A DNA stretch of 64,000 nucleotides. Source: Notolepis coatsorum. Lineage: Eukaryota > Chordata > Actinopteri > Aulopiformes > Paralepididae. The translations under genes were made by a program, and so were the position numbers. The stretch covers positions 19,410,290 to 19,474,289 of the forward strand of contig OZ020591.1 of NCBI GenBank assembly GCA_963971535.1, given 5' to 3'. The stretch's first letter is position 1; every line of letters begins with the position of its first letter. The notes below the pieces were generated by a model that did not search any database, was not told where the DNA came from, and saw nothing but the letters and a program-made list of their open reading frames with translations. This document shows positions 8,375 through 62,505 of the stretch, piece by piece.

Positions 8375-8551
8375 TCTTGGAGGTGGTACGTTCCTGGGGC
8401 TGTGCTGCTTGCTGACTGGCTGTGAGACCTTCGAGGAGGCATTGGAAATGGCCAGCAAGGGGGATTCCACCAACGTGGACAAGCTGGTGAAGGACATCTA
8501 CGGGGGAGACTACGAGCGCTTCGGCCTGCAAGGCTCTGCTGTAGCGTCCAG
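8375..8551 (+). CDS. pank1: Pantothenate kinase 1, internal exon (first in window)
   Basis: Pantothenate kinase phosphorylates pantothenate, the first and rate-setting step of coenzyme A synthesis. The 177-bp exon starts with the last base of a Ser codon and ends with AG of the next split Ser codon. It encodes [20 protein letters not shown], then [20 protein letters not shown] and [18 protein letters not shown]. The glycine-rich GGGTFLG belongs to the ASKHA-type nucleotide-binding core. The wording [18 protein letters not shown]...[10 protein letters not shown]...GLQGSAVAS follows PANK1; PANK2 and PANK3 read GLPGWAVAS. The acceptor is ccatcag; the donor is AG|gtcggc, a GT site with a weak tail. 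The N-terminal part of the kinase is encoded left of the window. Confidence 0.95.
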
Positions 8552-10774: not shown

Positions 10775-11929
10775 ACAATACAGAATATACTGTTATTCTT
10801 ATTGGGGTCTGTAGGGTAAGCACTTATTCCCTCCCCCCTGAACATTTATGGAGATGTATGGGCCTTTTAAGTCAGTGATAAAAGTGTCTTTCAAGGATAA
10901 GTGAGCTCCTGCACTGATTATTATAGTTCAATATTCAATATTTGATCACCAAAACCCCCCAAAAAGCATAAAAAGGGGGCCCCCCCGCCCGAAAAGGGCC
11001 CTTAAAAATCGGGCTTGCGCTCGGTTAAAACACACACAGGTATAGTGCCCTTTTCAGCCTTTGAGCACCTGCCCCTCTAAAGTCCTGTGCACGTCCCTGC
11101 ACACACGCATACACGCACGTATACACATGCACAAACGCACACCTTCCACAGAGGGGACGACGAATGCTTTACAAGGCTTCTCCACACAGGTTAGCATGTT
11201 AGCGTTATACTTGAGACTGACTAGATACACCGACCGTCTCAAGTTAACCCCCACAGGGAGCCGCGCACCTCGCTTGGGGGAAATCCAGGCGTCACAGCAG
11301 CGGAGTGTACAGGTAGAATAGGTAATAGTAGAGCCTCTCCTCGTGAACAGTCGCTTCTTCCTCTCGATAGCAGAATGAGGCTGTCCCCCTACCCCCCCCT
11401 CCCGCGGGTGTTCCGTGCCCTACATGGCAGCCGAGCTACACTGTGGTTGGGGGGGCACCAGGATGCTGATGATGTCTCGCCCTCCCAATCCCCCCCCCCC
11501 CCCGCGGGTGTTTCCGCGTCTAACATGGCAGCGGAGATACGCACACGTCTGTCTCAAGACTAGTGTGCCATTATTACTACCAAATGTAATAATTGTGGAA
11601 TATTACTATAATGAGCTGTATGTGTATGAACCAAGCATCCTATGTGAAGCACTTTGGTTGACAAGTGTCATGTCTAAATGTGCTATATAAATAAATTTGA
11701 TTGATTGTTAGAGGTAATAATAATAATAATAGAACATAGTTGTGTGCAAATTAAATGTATTCACCAAAAATAATGACTTATGAGACAGAGTGATGACACT
11801 CGTCAAGTCATGTTAATTTCCATATCAATACTCTGATAAGGTTGATTACCAACGAACAAACGTTGATTATTGATGAGCATCTCTTAACACAAGATATACA
11901 CACACCTCTTCTGGCTGTAGAGCACATGG
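10775..11929. other. No gene; low-complexity patches
   Basis: Holds a G/C homopolymer cluster near 10970-11000 and a partial duplication in which 'ccgcgggtgttccg' (11403) recurs as 'ccgcgggtgtttccg' (11503), each followed by a 'catggcagc' block. A short (AAT)n run lies near 11717. No exon was recognised. Confidence 0.45.
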
Positions 11930-12079
11930 CAACACGCTAGGGATGGGAATCCTAATTGTCCGATTCCTTGGACTATCGATTCCTCTTATCGATGCCATGT
12001 TTTTCCAACAGTTGCGCATTTTAACGCCGTAGAGAACGCATGCTGTATACTATGTTTCAGTTTGTTTGGGACCGGAGCC

Positions 12080-12246
12080 ATGGCGGGCAGAAATAAACGT
12101 TCAAAAGCGTGGCTGCATTTCACAAAAGTAGATGAAAACAGCGCAAGTTGTAGTATTTGCAAAATGTCAATTTCATGTAAGGGGGGAATGTAAGGGGGGA
12201 AATACTAGCAATATGCTGAAGCATTCGTCAACACAGCATGCCCTTA
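12080..12246 (+). pseudogene. BED zinc-finger fragment of a hAT transposase
   Basis: From the ATG at 12080 the + strand reads MAGRNKRSKAWLHFTKVDEN, then SASCSICKMSISCK, and in another frame GGNTSNMLKHSSTQHAL. The aromatic residues, the Cys pair C-x2-C and the H-x4-H (KHSSTQH) are those of a BED finger, used for DNA binding. A 13-bp tandem duplication (tgtaaggggggaa twice) shifts the frame before the histidines. The downstream part is cut off by the TTAA insertion. This is a dead plain DNA-transposon gene. Confidence 0.8.
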
Positions 12247-19755: not shown

Positions 19756-19879
19756 TTTTGGTCACATGATGAGTAAGGAGAAGAGGGATAGCATCAGCAA
19801 GGAGGACCTGGCCAGGGCAACGCTCGTCACCATCACCAATAACATAGGATCCATAGCACGCATGTGTGCCGTCAACGAG
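19756..19879 (+). CDS. pank1: Pantothenate kinase 1, internal exon
   Basis: The 124-bp exon starts with T, which completes the Ser codon begun as AG at 8550-8551. It encodes [20 protein letters not shown], then [20 protein letters not shown] and E. The [29 protein letters not shown] stretch matches PANK1; PANK2 has REAVSKED here. The acceptor is ttgttttctag and the donor GAG|gtacac, phase 0. The acceptor region is the shrunken end of a minisatellite, so only about 16 bp of non-repeat intron precede the exon. The following intron carries mir-107. Confidence 0.96.
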
Positions 19880-20085: not shown

Positions 20086-20165
20086 TGTGTGCTGTGAGCT
20101 TCTTTACAGTGTTGCCTTGTGGCATGGCGATCAAGCAGCATTGTACAGGGCTATCATAGCACACA
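20086..20165 (+). ncRNA. mir107: microRNA mir-107 hairpin in a pank1 intron
   Basis: The 3p arm at 20134-20156 begins AGCAGCATTGTACAGGG and ends CTATCA. The final TCA separates miR-107 from miR-103, which ends TGA. The 5p arm is at 20097-20119 (agcttctttacagtgttgcc). The stem base pairs tgtgtgct (20086-20093) with agcacaca (20158-20165) without mismatch. It lies 207 bp after the exon ending at 19879 on the gene's strand, the same place as in vertebrate PANK1, and is presumably processed from the pank1 transcript. Known role of the family: repression of metabolic and cell-cycle mRNAs through the GCAGCAU seed. Confidence 0.97.
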
Positions 20166-22695: not shown

Positions 22696-22821
22696 AAAAT
22701 TGAACGTGTGGTGTTTGTGGGGAATTTCCTGAGGATCAATACGGTGTCAACCAAACTGCTGGCCTACGCCATGGACTTCTGGTCGAAGGGACAACTCAAA
22801 GCCCTGTTCTTAGAACACGAG
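22696..22821 (+). CDS. pank1: Pantothenate kinase 1, penultimate exon
   Basis: The 126-bp exon is in phase 0 at both ends and encodes 42 residues: [20 protein letters not shown], then [20 protein letters not shown] and HE. By my count the Gly of FVGNFLR (codon 22720-22722) is the residue equivalent to human PANK2 Gly521, a frequent site of disease substitution, and it is kept here. The acceptor is ccccaaccag. The donor is GAG|gtcagt at 22822. The last 34 bp of the exon plus the donor are the seed of a 46-bp tandem array that follows at once, so 18 further copies of the same donor lie downstream. Confidence 0.96.
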
Positions 22822-23678
22822 GTCAGTACTGAGGGGACGACTCAAAGCCCTGTTCTTAGAACACGAGGTCAGTACTGAGGGGACGACTCAAAGCCCTGTT
22901 ATTAGAACACCAGGTCAGTACTGAGGGGACGACTCAAAGCCCTGTTCTTAGAACACCAGGTCAGTACTGAGGGGACGACTCAAAGCCCTGTTCTTAGAAC
23001 ACGAGGTCAGTACTGAGGGGACGACTCAAAGCCCTGTTCTTAGAACACGAGGTCAGTACTGAGGGGACGACTCAAAGCCCTGTTCTTAGAACACGAGGTC
23101 AGTACTGAGGGGACGACTCAAAGCCCTGTTCTTAGAACACGAGGTCAGTACTGAGGGGACGACTCAAAGCCCTGTTCTTAGAACACGAGGTCAGTACTGA
23201 GGGGACGACTCAAAGCCCTGTTCTTAGAACACGAGGTCAGTACTGAGGGGACGACTCAAAGCCCTGTTCTTAGAACACCAGGTCAGTACTGAGGGGACGA
23301 CTCAAAGCCCTGTTCTTAGAACACGAGGTCAGTACTGAGGGGACGACTCAAAGCCCTGTTCTTAGAACACAAGGTCAGTACTGAGGGGACGACTCAAAGC
23401 CCTGTTATTAGAACACCAGGTCAGTACTGAAGGGACGACTCAAAGCCCTGTTATTAGAACACCAGGTCAGTACTGAAGGGACGACTCAAAGCCCTGTTCT
23501 TAGAACACGAGGTCAGTACTGAAGAGACGACTCAAAGCCCTGTTCTTAGAACACCAGGTCAGTACTGAAGAGACGACTCAAAGCCCTGTTCTTAGAACAC
23601 CAGGTCAGTACTGAGGGGACGACTCAAAGCCCTGTTCTTAGAACACGAGGTCAGTACTGAAGGGACGACTCAAAGCCC
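22822..23678 (+). repeat. 46-bp minisatellite made of exon end plus 5' splice site
   Basis: Each unit is gtcagtactgaggggacgac followed by tcaaagccctgttcttagaa and cacgag. The second half is the end of the preceding pank1 exon and the first half is the start of its intron. The 19 copies of the donor (first one genuine) sit at exact 46-bp steps from 22822 to 23650 with no indel. Variants: cacCag for cacGag, ttAttag for ttCttag, gaAggg or gaAgag for gagggg. The coding copy alone has ggacAactc; the repeats have ggacGactc. Confidence 0.98.
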
Positions 23679-23753
23679 AAAAACATAATCCCTCTCAATC
23701 ATCGGGCCGAGATTTATTTCACGTCACAAATAGATCAATACAGTCCGTATTAA

Positions 23754-23959
23754 GCTCTTAAGCCTGAGCCCTATTTTCTGAAAATCCGCCTAAAAATACA
23801 TACCTAAGTAAATGGAAGATTGCTCCACTTCTACAAGGTCCATTTGCATGTTCTTTGTATCTAGGGACATCTATGGATCTCAGGGAATGTATTCCCAGCA
23901 ATATTGTGTCTGTTACTAGGCTTGAGTAAATTGTAATGAACCAAAGGAGAATATAAATT

Positions 23960-24010
<51 letters not shown>

Positions 24011-24609
24011 GGTATATCTTTTCATCTTTGACTGTGAATAACACCATGCTAAAAATGACCAGACATGACAAACTACAGGTCAATGGTACTAAATCCAGAT
24101 TGAACTCTGCCATTGGGAAGAGGAGATTTAGCCCGATCCATAGATGTATGACTTGGTCATAATAAGGTAATTTATAGGCCTGATATTCTATATTCTATAT
24201 TCCTATTCCTATGTGTCCGGATGGCAAAATTCTGTACTGTATCTACAAAAAACCCTGTAAATGATCTGCCCTTTATTCATTTGCTTAGATTTTTTGTACA
24301 CTTGATCTCAAGAAGGTGCTGAATTTGGTCAATGTTAGCATGGTGCCATGGTGTTATTCACCGTCAAAGATGGGAAAGTATATATATATATATAATAATT
24401 TTATATTCTCCTTTGATTCATTACAATTTACTCAAGCATAGTAACGGACACAATGTTCTCGTCACTGGAAATACATTCCCTGAGGTCCATAGATGTCCCT
24501 AGATACCAATAACATGCAAATGAGCCTTGGAGAAGTGCAGTAATCTTCCATTTACTTGGGTATGTACTTTTAGGCAAATCTTTTGGAAATATGGCTAGGG
24601 TTTAACGGG
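23754..24609. mobile_element. TTAA-flanked foldback element with a (TA)n core
   Basis: Bounded by TTAA at 23750-23753 and 24610-24613. The two halves are long inverted copies: 'tccatttgcatgttctttgt' on the left against 'aataacatgcaaatgagcct' on the right, and likewise the 'gtaatgaaccaaaggagaat' block. (TA)n runs lie at 23962-24008 and 24379-24393. Outside it the block 'aaacataatccctctcaatc' occurs on both sides (23681, 24630). No coding region. Confidence 0.7.
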
Positions 24610-25002
24610 TTAAGACTATACACTCGTACAAACATAATCCCTCTCAATCATCACTTAAGACAGGGGTGGGCAACTTTGTATATGGTGAGGGCCACAAAAT
24701 GTCCACAATCAATCTGGGGGGCCGCATTGTTTATCGGCAGTCCCGCCAGTAGTACCCCATCACTCAAATAGCCCATAATAGTCACAGATGTGATAAATAA
24801 GGTATATAAACAATTATAATTTGTTGTAACTTTGTTTTTATTCCATTTCAAATGCATTTAGTAATGCAATTTCAACTTTATGAATTTATAAACAGCTGAA
24901 TTTAAAAGTATTGCTGTAACCCCAAATATATACAAACATGATCAATTATAATTAAGGCTTCTAATAAAATAAATGTATGAACTTAAAGCCCACTGCTCAA
25001 CA

Positions 25003-25264
25003 AACACAAAGCAGCATTCCTGCTGCATTTCACTACAACAGTAAATCAAAAGTGCAATAATAAATTATTTTGTTAAATGTATAAACTTTTATCCTGCTAC
25101 TAAACAAAACATTATAACACTGAAATGCATGTTATGGATATGAAGCACTCAGGAATGTTTTGTTTAGTAGCAGGATACAAGTTTATACATTTAACAAAAT
25201 CATTTATTATTGCACTTTTGATTTACTGTTGTAGTGAAATGCAGCAGGAATGCTGCTTTGTGTT
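25003..25264. repeat. 111-bp near-perfect inverted repeat, 40-bp loop
   Basis: 25003-25113 and 25154-25264 are reverse complements with only about two mismatches over 111 bp; both hold 'gcagcaggaatgctgctttg' or its complement. Transcribed, it would fold into a long hairpin. Confidence 0.93.
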
Positions 25265-25407
25265 TGTGTTATTAGTGTTATCTGAACACTACAAAAGTAA
25301 ACAAGTAAAGTGCAAGTAAAGTAAAGTGCAATACTACATGCCTCCCATTGACCCTTTATCAAACTGGCATGACATTCACCCTCGCCCCACAGTGGGTCAA
25401 TAATGGT

Positions 25408-25409
<2 letters not shown>

Positions 25410-25465
<56 letters not shown>

Positions 25466-25600
25466 GTCCCCTCTCTACACCTCTCCATCATCTCCCCCCC
25501 CCTCTCTACACATCTTCATCATCTCTCCCCCCCCTCTCTACACCTCTTCATCATCTCCTTCCCCCCCTCTACACCTCTTCAGCATCTCCTCCCCCCCCTG
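25410..25600. repeat. (TAA)n followed by a C/T-rich 31-bp repeat
   Basis: 25410-25463 is (TAA)n. It is followed by about four copies of 'ctctctacacctcttcatca' plus 'tctcccccccc'. Confidence 0.9.
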
Positions 25601-26712
25601 TCTTTAATGAGACACTTGTGGTCTCTCCATTTGGCACACAATAGCAGGAATGTCAACTTCAATGTTTGTGCATGCAATCTGTATCAGATGAAATAATGTT
25701 TCATCCGACAGCCTGTTTCTCTCCTTTGACTTGATGTGCTTCATGTTTGAGAAATTGCTCTCACGTATGTATGTGCTCCCAAACATACTGGCCATAGAGA
25801 GGGCCTGAGGAGTGGGAAGCGGGGCTCAGGTAGCAGTTTCCAAAACGAAATTCCCCTCTCATTTCTCTTTGCTTGAAAAAAAGGATCTGACTGTAGCTTG
25901 CACAGTTCAAGCTGCAACGGTGGGGGCTGCTCTGACACCGTAGCGGTGAGGGGGCCGGCAAACAGCGCTATCCGTGACTGCATGCCGTTGAAATCTTCAA
26001 ACCGATCATTGAATTGCATTTGCAGTGTTTCAATGTCGCTCCTGTACTTTCCGACGGCTCAGCCATCGGATTTCTGTGTGTAGCTGCAAGTCGCCATAAT
26101 CAGTGTCCATCTCTTCCAAAAAGGAGACAAACTTTCTATGGTTTAGTGACCTGTTGCCTCCACAAATTAGATTGGTAACCTTGGTAACCAAATCCATAAC
26201 ATGGCTGTATTCAAGCTTCTTGGCACAGAGAGCCTCCTATATCAGATAAAAAAAAAGAAACGATTTAACGACTCTCGCATATAATTTGACTACACTCGAC
26301 TCGCATTGGTCATTATAGTGACGCACAATAGATGGAAATTATGTTAGCGAACTTACCTAATGTATAATGCAGTGCAGCATTGGACACTCAACGCCACTCT
26401 GACTTAGAAGCCCGGCGAATCCATCGGTAACAACAGCCGACAGTTTATCAAAACCCCCATATTGCTGCACGGCACTTTCAACAGCGTTGAATATGTGCAC
26501 ACTAGGGCTGACCCCTATTAGTCAAATAGTCGACTAATCGATCGAAAGGAGCCATTGTTGACTGCCAACTCTTCTTAGTCGAATACAATACAAAAAAATA
26601 AAAAAATATTATAATTTTTTATTTTTATTTTTTTTATTGGCCTGGGGCCGCATGGAACGTCGGTGAGGGCCGCCAGTTGCCCCTCCCTGACTTAAGACAA
26701 TGTATAGACTCG

Positions 26713-26865
26713 TACATGAATGAATGAAAATGAATGAATGAAAACTTTATTTAACAGATTGCAGAATGGGTACAGTACATCTCAATACACACAATTGTTA
26801 AGGGGATGCAGACCAGAGAAAGACGCTTGTCTTGTTTACATCAGGGTCCCACATTTTCAATTCAC
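26713..26865 (-). mobile_element. LINE 3' end, - strand
   Basis: (GAAT)n-type tail then 'acagattgcagaatgggtac', 'ggggatgcagaccagagaaa' and the 'cagggtccc' end. Same family as 20401 and 36482. Confidence 0.72.
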
Positions 26866-27308
26866 TTCCCTCTCAATCACATTATTGCTTGCATGTATCC
26901 TCTCCCGTTCCCCAGGTGTAAAATGCTTGGATAAACGCGCTGCTAGTCGGCAGTCCGTAGTTCTCTGCTCTCGTTTTCAAAAAGAAAATGGAAAATATTT
27001 TCCTGCTTCAAGTTGAACCTAAAATGTTTCTGACAATATCTTTAGTGTTAAGTTTGATATCTTGAGTGATTCTCTAGTGACATCTAGTGGCTGAAACTGC
27101 TTAGTACGCCTTTAACAGGGATGGAATATAAACATTGCAAGAGCAAAGATCATGGATTTTGCAGAGGTTATGTGAGGTAGGAAATGTATTCAGCTTGTAG
27201 ACTATAGAACAACAATAGAAGACTCTGTTGGAGACCTTTAAGTCCTGTTTCTAAAACACTGAACACAGTCACACTCGCACATGTCATGTTGTTCATGGCT
27301 TATCTGTG

Positions 27309-27656
27309 GAGTAGGGTATATCTGCAGAGCCACAAGCCCAACGTCTGGGCGGGGCTTCGTGGCTTGTACTTGGTTTGAGGCGGGTCTTCGGGCCCTGTAC
27401 TCGGTTTGACTGGGCGGGGCGTCGGGGCGTATACCTTGTCTTGTTTCCTGTAAAACCCGGAAGTAGTCAGTTTGTGCTGTTTTTTAACCCTAACCTTAAC
27501 CCTAACCTTTACCCTAACCTGTTTGTAAAAATAAACGGCACAAACTGACTACTGCACAGTCAAACTGAGTACAAGCCTGAATGCACAGTCAAACCGAGTA
27601 CAAGCCCCGCCCGGACGTTGGGCTTGCGGCTCTGCAGATATCCCCTATTCCTATTG
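27309..27656. mobile_element. Foldback element (348 bp) with telomere-like loop
   Basis: The arms 'tatctgcagagccacaagcc ... aacgtctgggcggggctt' and its inverted copy at 27590-27650 pair over most of the unit. 'agtagtcagtttgtgc' and 'gcacaaactgactact' pair near the loop. The loop holds aaccctaaccttaaccctaa (about 27486-27523), short and interrupted. Flanks TATCTGTG at 27301-27308 and 27657-27664 look like an 8-bp target duplication. Confidence 0.75.
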
Positions 27657-27847
27657 TATCTGTGAGGCTTGTGATTGTGTAAGGTGTATTCTACCTTGTC
27701 CCACAGGGGGGCGCTCTTGGCTCACTGTTAGTTATAGAGATGGTCATGTGTCCTCCACATGTACTGGATGTATTATGAGAGATTTAATGGGCCAAGTAAA
27801 GAGCTTCAACCAAAATAATAATATACATGATATACAGTACCCATGTA

Positions 27848-29020
27848 TGTACAGCACACACGCACAGCACAATCACACACAGGCACAGCACAAGCACACA
27901 CAAGCACAATCACACACAAGCACAATCACACAAGCACAGCACAATCACACACAGGCACAGCACAAGCACACACAAGCACACACAATCACACACAAGCACA
28001 ATCACACACAAGCACAGCACAATCACACACAAGCACAATCACACACAAGCTCAGCACAATCACACACAAGCACAATCACACACAAGCACAGCACAATCAC
28101 ACACAAGCACAATCACACACACAAGCACAATCACACACAAGCACAGCACAATCACACACAAGCACAGCACAATCACAATCACACACAAGCACAATCACAC
28201 ACAAGCACAAACACACACAAGCACAATCACACAAGCACAGCACAATCACACACAAGCACAATCACACACAAGCACAATCACACACAAGCTCAATCACACA
28301 CAAGCTCAGCACAATCACACACAAGCACAGCACAATCACAATCACACACAAGCACATTCACACACAAGCACAGCACAATCACAATCACACACAAGCACAT
28401 TCACACACAAGCACAGCACAATCACACTCACACACATGCACAGCACACTTACTCGCACACAAGCGCAGCACAGTCACACTCACATTCACACACAAGCACA
28501 GCACAATCACACTCACACAAGCGCAGCACAATCACACTCACACAAGCGCAGCACAATCACACTCACACAAGCGCAGCACAATCACACTCACATTTACACA
28601 CAAGCGCAGCACAATCACACTCACACAAGCGCAGCACAATCACACTCACACAAGCGCAGCACAATCACACTCACATTTACACACAAGCGCAGCACAATCA
28701 CACTCACATTCACACACAAGCACAGCACAATCACACTCACATTCACACACATGCACAGCACACTCACATTCACACACAAGCGCAGCACAATCACACTCAC
28801 ATTCACACACAAGCGCAGCACAATCACACTCACATTCACACACAAGCGCAGCACAATCACACTCACATTTACACACAAGCGCAGCACAATCACACTCACA
28901 TTCACACACAAGCACAGCACAATCACACTCACATTCACACACAAGCGCAGCACAATCACACTCACATTCACACACAAGCACAGCACAATCACACTCACAC
29001 ACAGCGCAGCACAGTTACCC
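27848..29020. repeat. CA-rich composite minisatellite, 1.2 kb
   Basis: The left half is built of cacacaagcacagcacaatc-like units; the right half of longer units that add 'acactcacattcacacacaa'. All three + frames are open for most of its length and encode only HTQAQHNHT or SHTSTAQSH runs, so the ORFs are by-products of the repeat. Confidence 0.95.
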
Positions 29021-29059
29021 ACAGTAGCTCACGCTCAGATTCAAGATGAGTGCTGCACA

Positions 29060-29529
29060 GGGCGGCTGGGTGGCGTAGCGGAGATTGCACTAGTCACCAA
29101 CGCAAGAGACTCCGGTCTCGACTCCCCGAGTCAGCGTTGCCTCCGGCTTGGGCCAGTCGTCATACTATCTCAATTGGCAGAGGTAGCGGGTGGAAGTCGA
29201 TGGGTGGGGATTGGACGTTGTGGACTGCGACTCCTACAGGTCGGTTGGGGGACGCCTGCACAGCAGAGACAGGAAGTAGCAGGGGTAGTGTGAGCCTCCC
29301 ATGCGTTACACCTCGCCACTGAGTCCGCGCTGTCTGGTGAAAAGATGCGACAGGCTGCCTCCTCGTGTACCGGAGGGGACACGTGATGCAAGGCTTCTAT
29401 CCTCCCTACGACCGACCAGTGGGAGGCATAGTCTAGCAACGTTCAAGACAGGGGAGGGGAGAATTGGCAATACGAAATCGGGATGGGAGAAAAATAGAAA
29501 AATAAGGAGAAAAAGTGGATACAAAAAAA
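29060..29529 (+). mobile_element. tRNA-derived SINE, about 470 bp
   Basis: Starts gggcggctgggtggcgtagc and ends gagaaaaagtggatac plus A-run. Flanked by agatgagtgctgcaca (29044-29059) and agattagtgctgcaca (29530-29545), one mismatch. It sits 90 bp before the last pank1 exon, in the sense direction. Confidence 0.88.
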
Positions 29530-29619
29530 AGATTAGTGCTGCACACACATAGTCAAGAGTGCAGTTGTTATGGAGAAGTGTTTACTGACCCCCCCCCCCC
29601 CCCCCCCCTGTGTTTCCAG

Positions 29620-29679
29620 GGTTATTTTGGAGCGGTGGGAGCGCTGATGGAGCTGCTGAAGACGATGGAGGAGCCGTGA
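29620..29679 (+). CDS. pank1: Pantothenate kinase 1, last coding exon and stop
   Basis: After the acceptor tgtttccag the exon reads GYFGAVGALMELLKTMEEP and stops at TGA 29677-29679. GYFGAVGAL is the family's conserved C-terminal signature; the tail LMELLKTMEEP resembles the PANK1 and PANK2 tails (LLELFKMTDDK, LLELLKIP) rather than that of PANK3. It joins the exon ending at 22821 in phase 0. The polypyrimidine tract is an uninterrupted run of 20 C (29589-29608). Confidence 0.94.
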   Translation, partial: GYFGAVGALMELLKTMEEP

Positions 29680-30235
29680 AAGAGCACCACATTGTGATGT
29701 CATCAACCCCTTAGCGGCATGACGTCATGGACCCACTGCTTCGGGAGGTCCTCCCCACAGGAGGCCTCCACAGGAACTACTGGGAGGGAGACGGATACTG
29801 GGAAAAGCCATTTTAATAATTTAAACAAATGTACATAATATCCTCCCCGGAGAATCCCCCGAAATAGAGGTTTTAATATTGTAAACACTAATTTATGGTG
29901 TCCTACGAATCTGCTCTGTGTAAGTGTTGGGGGACGAGACGATGGAGCGTTTTAGTTTCTTGGTACTCTGTGTGTGAGTGAGTGTGTGAGTGAGTGAGTG
30001 AGTGGGTGAGTGAGTGAGTGAGTGAGCGAGCGAGTGAGTGTGTAAATAGCTACTGGAGCGTCACGTTGTGTCCTTTAAGGCCGTGACACTTTGTCCCATT
30101 CATTTGACCATGTTTGCCTGTCAGGGGTTGTGATAAGGGTCCTCATGGAGTCCTTACTAAGGGTCCGTATGGAGTCCTAATTAAGGTTCTTTATTAAGGG
30201 TACTTATGGAGTGCACTGAAGCCAAATCCTGCTGA

Positions 30236-51446: not shown

Positions 51447-54400
51447 TGTAATGGTCCACCTGTCCTGAGGTTTTCCCCTGCCCTTCACTCGCCTCCACCT
51501 TTGCACAGACTTTCCCCTGCTCCTCACTTGCCCCCACCTTTGCACAGACTTTCCCCTGCTCCTCACTCGCCCCCATCTTTGCCACCTACTGGACAGATGC
51601 TGTCATTGCTCCTCCTCCATTTATGTGTTGTTAAAGTGTCAGTGTTTTTGTGTTTTCTCCCCATTTTGCTGTCGCTCCCTGTATATCTGTTACCCTCTGT
51701 GCTCCCGTGTTTTTGTTAAGTGTTATGTTCCTAGTTGTTAGTTATTTGCGTTGTTGTATGATTGTTGTTATGTTTACTCTGTCTAGTGTTCAGTCTTTTC
51801 TTGTGTCTATTTCCTTCCTGGTTGTCTCTCTCCCCATGTGTATCTCGTTTTGCTGATTGCCCTTCTGTGTCTCATGTGTGTTAATTGTTCCCCCTATATC
51901 TGTTGTGCCTTCCCTGCCCTCCAGTGTCGGTTCATTGTTTGTGTTCATGGTCTGTTTGCTGTCTGTTTGCTGTCTGTTGTTGTCGATGTCCATGTTCTGT
52001 CAGTTACTCTGTTCCTGTGATCCTGTGACTCCCTATCCAGTATTTTGTAGTAAGTGTTTCCAGTGTTAATGTTCTTTGTTCTCCATCTTTGTTTTCGTGT
52101 TACAGTTCGTTTTTGGTTAGTGCTTTGTTTGTAGATTAGTTTGTTTGTTTTCCCTACCAGCTCTGCTGTGGTTCTTAGTTATTTGGTTTATGTTTTTGTC
52201 CTCTGCCAGCTATTGCTGTGCTACCCCTGTCTTGTTGCACCAAGTAAAGGCTCATTTTGATATACTTCACCCCTGGCTCCTCGTCTCGTTCTGCCTATTG
52301 CCCTTTCTCTTCATCCTGTTCTGCGCTTGGGTCCTCCGCCAACACTATCCCTAACATTATGAACTGACCAGAATTGGACCCAGCGAACAGGACAAGGGAG
52401 GCCTTGAGCACCCTGGCTGTCCTCGCCATGGGCGAGGTTGATTCCTTCTCCTTGGAGGAGAAGAGGGCCACCCTGTGTCTGGTCTACTCGGTCAGAGAGT
52501 GGAACCCTGAGCCGACCCCACAGCTGGACAAGTACCTGAGGACCTGGATAGAGTGCCTATTCCAGCCTCCAGTCTCCAGCCAAGCCTCTACTGCTGGCAA
52601 GGCCTCAACTGCCAGCATGGTCCCGACTGCTGGTAAGGCCTCTACTGCCAGCATGGCTTCAGTGGTTAGCTTAGCCTCAACTGCTAGCATAGCTACTGCT
52701 AGTACAGTCCCTACTGCTAGCGTAGCTTCCACAGCTAGCACGGCCTCCACTGCTAGCACAGCCCCTACTGCTAGTACCTACTGCTAGCGTAGCATCGTCA
52801 GCTAGCCTGTTCCCCACTGCTAGGACTGCCCCTTCAGCTAGCAAGGTCAGTTTGCCAGGAGCCGCTCTGTTGGCTAATCCCTTGGTTTCCATGGCTAGCA
52901 CAGCCCCTACTGCTAGTTCAGTCCCTACTGCTAGCATAACTTTGTCAGCTAGCCTGTTCCCCACAGCTAGGACTGCCCCTTCAGCTAGCTTGTTCCCTAC
53001 AGCTAGCACAGCCTCTACTGCTAGCTTAGCTTCTACTGCTAGTACAGTTTCTACTGCTAGCGTAGCTTCCACAGCTAGCCAGGCCTCCACTGCTAGCGTA
53101 GCTACTGCGTCTAGCCAGGCCTCCACAGCTAGCACAGTCCCTACTGCTAGTGTAGCTTCGTCAGCTAGCTCGTCCCCTATGGCTAGGAGAGCACTCTGTG
53201 TGGGCTCCTTAGCCCCTACTGCTTGCCTACCCCCTACAGCTAGAACGGCCCCTTCAGCTAGCTTGTCTCCCACAGCTAGGACTGCCCCTTCAGCTAGCTT
53301 GTTCCCTGCAGCTAGTAGTTCTCCGAAGGCTAGCAAGACTCGGAAGGCTAGCAAAGCCCTTACAGCTAGCAAAACGTCTGCAGCTAGCAGAACCTCTACA
53401 GCTAGCATGACCTCAGCTGCTAGTGTAGCCCCGGCTGCTCCTGTCCCTGCTCCGGCTCCCGGGGAGACCCCGACTCCTGGTCCGGGTCATGCTTTTGCTC
53501 CGGTTCCTGGGGAGTCACCAGCTCCCGGTTCTGCTTCTATGCCTGGTCCGGCCTCTATGCCTGGCCCAGCCTCTACGCCTGGTCCGGCCCCTACGCCTGG
53601 CCTGGCCTCTACGCCTGAGTTCGGTTCTACGCCCGGTCCGGCTCCCCCGCCTGGCCCAGCCACTACGCCCAGGTCTGCTTCAACGCCTGGTCCCGGTCCC
53701 ACGTCTGGTCCTGCCCCCAAGTCCAGGTCCGCGTCTATGTCTGGTCCCGGCTCTACATCTGGTCCCGGCTCCTCGTCTGGTCCCGCCTCTACGTCCGGGT
53801 CTGCTTCTACGTCTGGTCCCGACTCCTCATCTGGTCCCGCCTCTACGTCCGGGTCTGCTCCTATGTCTGGTCCCGACTCCTCGTCTGGTCCCGCCTCTAC
53901 GTCCAGGTCTGCTTCTACGTCTGGTCCCAGCTCCCCATCTGGTCCCGCCTCAGCACCCGGTCCTGCTTCTTCGCCTGGTCCCGGTTCTGCGCCTGGTCCA
54001 GTTCTACGCCATGGTCTGCACCGTGGTCTATGCCGTGGTCTGCGCCGAGGCCCACGTCTGGGTCTGCGCCGAGGTCTACGCCTGGAGGCACTCCTGTCCG
54101 GGGTCCTACACCGGGTCCCGTTTCCGGGGGGACCCCAGCCCCAGGTCCTACTCCTGGGCTGTCGCCTCAGCCCCCCTGCTCCAGCCCCCCCTCGTCGGCC
54201 CTCCGTCCCCGTTTCCAGTCCCCCTGATCCTGTGTCGCGTTCTCCCTTCTCCAGACCCCTCTCCGGTCCTGTTCCCTGGCCCCCCTTCTATGCCCCTCCT
54301 GGGTTCTTTTCTCCACCCCCGTGCTCCAGTTCTCCTCGGCCCCCCAGCCCCAGTCCCATTGGTCCTTTCCCCTGGCCCCCCTACTCCAGCCCCTTTCCTC

Positions 54401-55422
54401 AGCCCCCCTTCTCCTATGCCCCTCCAAGGTTTTTGTCACCGCCCCCCTGCCCCAGGGCCCCCCATCCTAGCCCTGTTCGTCCTGACCTTTTCCCCGGACT
54501 CTCCCTGTGTTCACCCTCCCTGGATCCCGGCCCCCGTCTTGCCCGTCCCCGGGTGGTCTTATGGGCCGTCTGGTAGCCGTCCCTTGAGGGGGGAGAACTG
54601 TAAGGGTCCACCTGTCCTGAGGTTTTCCCCTGCCCTTAACTCGCCCCCACCTTTGCACAGACTTTCCCATGCTCCTCACTTGCCCCCACCTTCGCACAGA
54701 CTTTCCCCTGCTCCTCACTCGCCTCTTTGCCACCTACTGGACAGATGCTGCCATTGCTCCTTCTCCATTTATGTGTTGTTAAAGTGTCAGTGTTTTTGTG
54801 TTTTCTCCCCATTTTGCTGTTGCTCCCTGTATATCTGTTACCCTCTGTGCTCCCGTGTTTTTGTTAAGTGTTATGTTCCTAGTTGTTAGTTCTTTGTGTT
54901 GTTGTAGGATTGTTGTTATGTTTACTCTGTCTAGTGTTCAGTCTTTTCTTGTGTGTTTCCTTCCTGGTTGTCTCTCTCCCCATGTGTGTCTCGTTTTACT
55001 GATTGCCCTGCTGTGTCTCATGTGTGTTAATTGTTCCCCCTATATCTGTTGTGCCTTCCCTGCCCTCCAGTGTCGGTTCATTGTTTGCGTTCATGGTCTG
55101 TTTGCTGTTGCTATTCCTGTCGATGCCTATGTTCTGTCAGTTACTCTGTTCCTGTGATCCTGTGACTCCCTATCCAGTATTTTGTAGTAAGTGTTTCCAG
55201 TGTTAGTGTTCTTTGTTCTCCATCTTTGTTTTCGTGTTACAGTTCGTTTTTGGTTAGTGCTTTGTTTGTAGATTAGTTTGTTTTCCCTACCCCTGTCTTG
55301 TTGCACCAAGTAAAGGCTCATTTTGATATACTTCACCCCTGGCTCCTCGTCTCGTTCTGCCTATTGCCTTTTCTCCTCGTCCTGTTCTGCGCGTGGGTCC
55401 TCCGCCAACACTATCCCTAACA
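51447..55422 (+). mobile_element. LTR retrotransposon without a recognisable pol region
   Basis: A fossil with two LTRs, 51447-52356 (910 bp) and 54599-55422 (824 bp), both running TGTAA...GGTCCACCTGTCC to CCCTAACA and clearly alike along their length, so the insertion is fairly recent. Flanked by ATTTT (51442-51446, 55423-55427). A purine tract (gaggggggagaa) precedes the right LTR. The 2.2-kb inside begins with a gag-like leader whose first residues resemble the MDPA start of Ty3-type gag, then becomes Ala/Ser/Thr and Pro/Gly-rich repeat. No protease, reverse transcriptase or integrase was seen, so it looks non-autonomous (Ty3/gypsy-derived). Confidence 0.88.
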
Positions 55423-61952: not shown

Positions 61953-62505
61953 TTAGCCCCTCACTCAGATGGACCATGTAAACCTAGGTGTGTATTAACT
62001 CCTCAGTCAGATGGCCTATATACATCTAGGTGTGTATTAACTCCTCAGTCAGATGGCCCATGTAAACCTAGGTGTGTATTAACTCCTCACTCAGATGGCC
62101 TATATACATCTAGGTGTGTATTAACTCCTCAGTCAGATGGCCTATATACATCTAGGTGTGTATTAACTCCTCACTCAGATGGCCTATATACATCTAGGTG
62201 TGTATTAACTCCTCAGTCAGATGGCCTATATACATCTAGGTGTGTATTAACTCCTCACTCAGATGGCCTATATACATCTAGGTGTGTATTAACTCCTCAG
62301 TCAGATGGCCTATATACATCTAGGTGTGTATTAACTCCTCAGTCAGATGGCCTATATACATCTAGGTGTGTATTAACTCCTCAGTCAGATGGCCTATATA
62401 CATCTAGGTGTGTATTAACTCCTCAGTCAGATGGCCTATATACATCTAGGTGTGTATTAACTCCTCAGTCAGATGGACCATGTAAACCTAGGTGTGCATT
62501 TTGTT
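61953..62505. repeat. 42-bp minisatellite, 13 copies, open in one + frame
   Basis: Unit cctcagtcagatggcctata plus tacatctaggtgtgtattaa and ct. 42 bp is 14 codons, so the frame CVLTPQSDGLYTSR stays open; with flanks it runs from ATG 61911 to 62732. c/g (PHSD/PQSD) and GPCKPR/GLYTSR variants occur. The ORF ends inside a reversed SINE, which argues against a real protein. Confidence 0.95.

What the first reader, a model, noticed from the sequence alone, without database searches (positions are those of the whole stretch)
22788..23678. pank1 exon end and its splice donor amplified into 19 perfectly spaced 5' splice sites
Seen: the last 34 bp of the penultimate coding exon plus the first 12 bp of the intron are repeated in tandem. 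GAG|gtcagt or CAG|gtcagt occurs 19 times at exact 46-bp steps (22822 to 23650) with no indel. The CAG form is closer to the donor consensus than the genuine GAG form. Inference: if the first repeat donor is used, 46 nt are added and the last exon is read in another frame. If the second or a later donor is used, translation stops at TGA 22876-22878; from the third on, that stop is 81 nt or more before the junction and should trigger nonsense-mediated decay. A copy-number-variable repeat could thus tune pank1 output or C-terminus.
Basis: partly seen in the sequence, partly recalled or inferred. Interest (0 to 1): 0.82.

Follow-up and report, generated by a model that had tools for sequence, protein, structure and literature searches.

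The report
Splice-donor minisatellite in pank1 intron
A repeated DNA block grew out of the end of a pank1 exon and copied the signal that starts the intron 18 more times; a similar case is known in a human gene, and the DNA alone cannot show whether the extra copies are used.

Summary
The first is the authentic 5' splice site of the penultimate coding exon of a vertebrate pank1 gene.

Regulation is not shown. No transcript, second individual or related species could be reached. The array shows no sign of selection on its donors. Minisatellites cover 19% of the window, and five other arrays repeat donor-like motifs, three of them on the + strand. My reading is a minisatellite founded on an exon end and tolerated in the intron, with the authentic donor dominant and low use of the next one or two. 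Human IFI6 is a direct precedent. Against this, papers report that the intron-proximal of two comparable donors is favoured. Unlike a unit of a multiple of three, 46 bp makes every downstream donor change the C-terminus, so the locus is a natural test of choice among near-identical donors.

The parts
22696..22821 (+). penultimate coding exon of pank1 (126 nt, 42 codons)
   Evidence: translation P0001; best solved relative PANK1 2i7n, E 1.1e-19; Fumble domain
22788..23678 (+). 46-bp minisatellite, 19.4 copies; the first copy is exon end plus 12 nt of intron
22819..22827 (+). authentic donor GAG|GTCAGT
   Evidence: exon end by comparison with PANK1 chains
22868..23655 (+). 18 extra donor copies, first intronic bases at 22868 + 46n, n = 0 to 17: 10 GAG, 7 CAG, 1 AAG
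22876..22878 (+). TGA met in frame if donor 2 or any later donor is used
29620..29679 (+). last coding exon, GYFGAVGALMELLKTMEEP and stop; acceptor TTTCCAG before it
19756..19879 (+). preceding pank1 exon; edges inferred from AG and GT next to the match
8375..8551 (+). next upstream pank1 exon; edges inferred from AG and GT next to the match
20087..20164 (+). mir-103/107 precursor in the intron before the penultimate exon
   Evidence: Rfam RF00129, 89.2 bits, E 2.1e-20

Best explanation
A tandem duplication crossed the end of the penultimate pank1 exon and the start of its intron; an intronic copy then multiplied to 18 full copies and a remnant (supported by the base that all 18 share and the exon lacks). 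Each copy carries the donor with at least 34 nt of the exon before it, so U1 could bind any of 19 sites (inferred). The likeliest outcome is that the first donor, which closes a 126-nt exon, makes most mRNA, and that the next one or two are used at low level (inferred, by analogy with IFI6). Donor 1 would give a 46-residue foreign tail and donor 2 an 18-residue tail in place of the conserved GYFGAVGAL end; donors 3-18 would give targets of nonsense-mediated decay (frames computed, fate inferred). The array is then mostly a tolerated passenger and not a switch.
For: Unit structure and shared base at position 6. The exon copy keeps the conserved Gln codon and the last exon encodes a conserved end, so the gene looks intact. 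Window rich in minisatellites: 36 arrays, 19.0% of bases. In human IFI6 two downstream repeat units are used as donors, giving three mRNA species (PMC4526556, passage). Donor k = 1 to 3 would give exons of 172-264 nt, k = 18 one of 954 nt; that very long internal exons are poorly recognised is recalled.
Against: No transcript data. Seven CAG copies and the AAG copy score higher than the authentic donor by a recalled matrix, though AAG is not better by duplex energy (-6.2 against -6.3). The authentic donor is the most intron-distal of 19, and PMC6002489 says that the intron-proximal of two comparable donors is favoured (passage). Predicted accessibility of the authentic donor is lower with the array (0.001) than with it removed in silico (0.011).
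Confidence: 0.55

Rival explanations
1. Regulated switch: a copy-number-variable donor array tunes the fraction of productive pank1 mRNA, or makes a useful alternative C-terminus.
For: 16 of 18 extra donors give a stop 81-771 nt before the last junction; donor 1 leaves an open frame to 29714.
Against: No sign of selection: 4 of 46 positions vary among 18 intronic units, one of them in the donor (position -3), which fits chance. The donor-1 tail replaces a conserved end. 46 bp is an arbitrary length for a designed tail.
Confidence: 0.1
2. Damaging allele: later donors win, most transcripts are truncated or decayed, and pank1 is weakened in this individual or species, with other pank genes covering.
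For: Preference for intron-proximal donors when two are comparable (PMC6002489; SRSF1 effect in PMC5585400); CAG copies match U1 better.
Against: The four exons found read through without a stop and keep conserved sequence. Whether other pank genes exist in this genome was not testable.
Confidence: 0.12
3. Strictly inert: only the first donor is ever used, because exon signals or RNA structure set it apart or hide the copies.
For: Unit holds the palindrome TCAGTACTGA over the donor; predicted chance of a fully unpaired donor is 0.008 or less at 19 of 19 sites.
Against: The authentic donor is hidden as well (0.001); background median is 0.008. A 10-nt palindrome occurs in 4.6% of shuffled units, and 157 of 500 shuffled-unit tandems fold at least as stably.
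Confidence: 0.12
4. Assembly artefact: the repeat exists but the copy number is wrong, or the array belongs elsewhere.
For: Near-identical tandem units are hard to assemble; units 1, 4-9 and 11 are identical.
Against: Eight distinct unit sequences are interspersed, and the array starts in register with the intact exon.
Confidence: 0.08

Closest known systems
[quoted passage not shown]
   Same: A tandem repeat at an exon end whose units carry the donor; two downstream units are used there (PMC4526556, passage; the 1995 paper itself is not held, only its title was seen).
   Different: The IFI6 unit is 12 bp and keeps the frame (recalled). Here it is 46 bp, so donor 1 shifts the frame and later donors meet a stop. 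Use is shown in IFI6 and unknown here.
Internal tandem repeats at exon-intron boundaries of human genes in segmental duplications (PMC2812944)
   Same: Expanded minisatellites that cross exon-intron boundaries and can change splicing (passages).
   Different: Those are young primate paralogues with transcript support and novel introns; this is a conserved kinase gene without transcript data here.
Intron gain by tandem duplication of an AGGT segment (Rogers model; PMC4974935)
   Same: The duplicated segment contains AG|GT. The potato case crosses an intron-exon boundary, and fission yeasts have an AGGT-containing 24-bp exonic segment duplicated several times (abstract and Introduction).
   Different: AG|GT here is an existing donor, and no new intron is shown. 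Introns of 84 nt and more inside the array are possible on paper; the acceptor-like CTTAG or ATTAG in the units ranks 33-47 and 74-76 of 437 AGs in the intron.

Membership tests
IFI6-type splice-donor minisatellite | tandem array that begins at an exon end, with a donor in each unit | tested here: met
   19 of 19 full units; exon end supported by PANK1 alignment
IFI6-type splice-donor minisatellite | more than one repeat donor used in mRNA | not testable with these tools
   no transcript data; own-genome search not answered
IFI6-type splice-donor minisatellite | unit length a multiple of three (a property of IFI6, recalled, not a requirement) | tested here: not met
   period 46
Intron gain by tandem duplication | duplicated segment with AG|GT | tested here: met
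   GAG|GT, CAG|GT or AAG|GT in each full unit
Intron gain by tandem duplication | a new intron removed from RNA | not testable with these tools
   no transcript data
pank1 (vertebrate pantothenate kinase 1) | closest to PANK1 among solved kinases | tested here: met
   best hit is a PANK1 chain in 4 of 4 searches; margins over PANK3 are small for single exons
pank1 (vertebrate pantothenate kinase 1) | mir-103/107 in an intron (found in PANK genes; the link of mir-107 to PANK1 is recalled) | tested here: met
   the family does not tell mir-107 from mir-103

The most novel reading that the evidence does not exclude
A frame-breaking donor array whose copy number sets how much pank1 transcript goes to truncated protein or decay, so that a variable minisatellite acts as a heritable rheostat on coenzyme A synthesis.
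Probability: 0.08. Interest if true: 0.8.

Novelty: new member of a known kind. Interest (0 to 1): 0.42.

Why it matters
How the spliceosome picks among comparable 5' splice sites is called not known in PMC6002489 (passage). Here 19 near-identical donors with the same 34 nt of exon before them (apart from a few single-base variants) are evenly spaced, and each leaves a junction that reads can tell apart. Counting those junctions would give a natural curve of donor choice against distance from the upstream acceptor, with no designed construct. If copy number varies and matters, it would also be a variable repeat that acts on an essential metabolic gene through splicing.

Tried and rejected
Selection on the donors: no evidence. 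Four of 46 positions vary among the 18 intronic units, one of them (position -3) in the donor.

RNA structure hiding the copies: not beyond controls for stability (157 of 500) or palindrome (4.6%). Accessibility had no shuffled control.

Donor-like array as such being unique: rejected. Six of 36 arrays, this one included, hold at least three sites at or above the authentic score on one strand (four on +, two on -), and the array at 1-2475 holds 107 CAG|GTGAAC just below that score.

Arrays concentrated at exon edges: rejected. 1 of 8 pank1 edges lies in an array; circular shifts give at least one in 66% of trials (one edge was entered as 8372, 3 nt off).

CTNS minisatellite lead: not relevant, it lies within an intron (passages). 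PMC12771815: nothing on point in the passages.

Errors and limits: the row '8550' was set 2 nt wrong; that exon ends CAG|gtcggc at 8551 and was not rescored. The donor and acceptor matrices were typed from recall and are approximate; no MaxEntScan was at hand. Paper searches aimed at a fish or pank1 case (1 paper; 7 papers, 6 listed) were seen as listings only; none had a title on this. Other listings.

Full report
Observation. The array at 22788-23678 is in the sequence as described: period 46, 19.4 copies, no indels. In register it has 19 full units and a 17-nt remnant, and xAG|GTCAGT occurs in 19 of 19 full units: 11 GAG, 7 CAG, 1 AAG.

The gene. Coding exons of a pantothenate kinase gene lie at about 8375-8551, 19756-19879, 22696-22821 and 29620-29679. 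Their matches to a recalled human PANK core are 98, 95, 89 and 63% identical. Frames holding three of the four (the last was not tested) hit Fumble in Pfam. The best solved relative is a PANK1 chain in 4 of 4 searches, by small margins over PANK3 for single exons. A mir-103/107 precursor lies at 20087-20164. The host is therefore taken to be a vertebrate; the species was not identified. With the recalled query no upstream pank1 exon was found in the window.

Origin. The exon copy reads GGACAACTC (Gly-Gln-Leu, as in the PANK1 and PANK3 chains); 18 of 18 full intronic units and the remnant read R-variant GACGACTC. So one intronic copy probably changed once and then multiplied. Of 19 unit junctions, 5 read GAA as the exon does and 14 read GAG; 3 of the 5 continue GGGAC like the exon and 2 read GAGAC. 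The GAA form is probably the older and now sits towards the 3' side (inference). Units 1, 4-9 and 11 are identical, which suggests recent growth on the 5' side (inference). The 18 intronic units have eight distinct sequences; pairs differ by 1.5 bases on average, at most 3, and 31 of 153 pairs are identical.

Donor strength. By a recalled matrix the authentic GAG|GTCAGT scores 3.56, the CAG form 4.60 and the AAG form 4.43, against 8.63 for the consensus; the 19 sites take ranks 2-9 and 12-22 of 332 GTs from 22822 to 29619. Rank 1 is ATG|GTGAGG at 24685, outside the array. U1 duplex energies are -6.3 (GAG), -7.7 (CAG), -6.2 (AAG) and -11.8 kcal/mol (consensus). The donor of the preceding exon, GAG|GTACAC, scores -0.84. 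So the authentic site is moderate, and eight copies equal or exceed it by matrix, seven by duplex.

Consequences, computed. Donor 0 gives GYFGAVGALMELLKTMEEP. Donor 1 adds 46 nt and gives a 46-residue foreign tail that ends at 29714. Donors 2-18 stop at 22876-22878 after an 18-residue tail; the stop lies 35 nt before the junction for donor 2 and 81-771 nt for donors 3-18. By the usual 50-55 nt rule (recalled), 16 of 18 extra donors would give decay targets and 2 of 18 would give altered protein. GYFGAVGAL is identical in the five PANK1 and PANK3 chains shown, so altered proteins are probably inactive (inference).

Controls. Thirty-six minisatellite-like arrays (period 9 or more, score 100 or more) cover 12,164 bases, 19.0% of the window. 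One of 8 pank1 exon edges falls in one; circular shifts hit at least one edge in 66% of trials. Six of 36 arrays hold three or more sites at or above the authentic donor score on one strand, this one included: four on + and two on -. What sets this one apart is that it starts on a real exon end and holds the donor in every full unit. Tests of structure were negative or inconclusive, and selection was not seen. The acceptor-like CTTAG or ATTAG in the units ranks 33-47 and 74-76 of 437 AGs, so introns inside the array are possible but not favoured.

Against my reading. PMC6002489 states that the intron-proximal of two comparable donors is favoured, for reasons not known (passage), and PMC5585400 describes SRSF1 acting that way (passages). 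The authentic donor here is the most intron-distal. If that preference ruled, most transcripts would be truncated. I keep the first donor as dominant because the gene looks intact, because exon length grows from 126 to 954 nt, and because IFI6 uses the first few units; this is inference.

Precedent. [quoted passage not shown] the paper itself is not held). PMC4526556 says that two downstream repeat units serve as donors, giving three mRNA species (passage). PMC2812944 reports tandem repeats at exon-intron boundaries of human duplicated genes that alter splicing (passages). PMC4974935 reviews new introns made by duplication of AGGT segments, including a 24-bp segment duplicated several times in fission yeasts (Introduction). 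So the kind is known; the frame-breaking unit and the 18 extra donors are the differences.

Verdict. Observation confirmed, frame logic right, regulation unproven. Most likely a tolerated minisatellite with the first donor dominant and low leakage into the next one or two.

Noticed in passing
51447-52356 and 54599-55422: Two direct repeats of roughly 0.8-0.9 kb, 96-97% alike in five ungapped pieces, flank a stretch with a 616-codon low-complexity frame (52726-54576) built on an 18-bp period; it looks like an LTR-type element. No Pfam hit for two frames.
   Followed up: partly
1-2475: A 20-bp array of about 126 copies holds 107 exact CAG|GTGAAC, a donor-like motif slightly weaker than the pank1 donor by a recalled matrix.
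   Followed up: partly
61984-62476: A 42-bp array holds 12 copies of TAG|GTGTGT, donor-like at or above the pank1 score, and lies in a 275-codon frame.
   Followed up: no
26916 and 23865: Two acceptor-like sites in the same intron score 5.85 and 5.47 by a recalled matrix, next to 5.62 for the authentic acceptor at 29620.
   Followed up: no
11921-12193: A 90-codon frame just reaches the Pfam cut-off for a BED zinc finger (20.8 bits against 20.6), perhaps a transposon fragment.
   Followed up: no
20087-20164: mir-103/107 precursor between two pank1 exons.
   Followed up: yes
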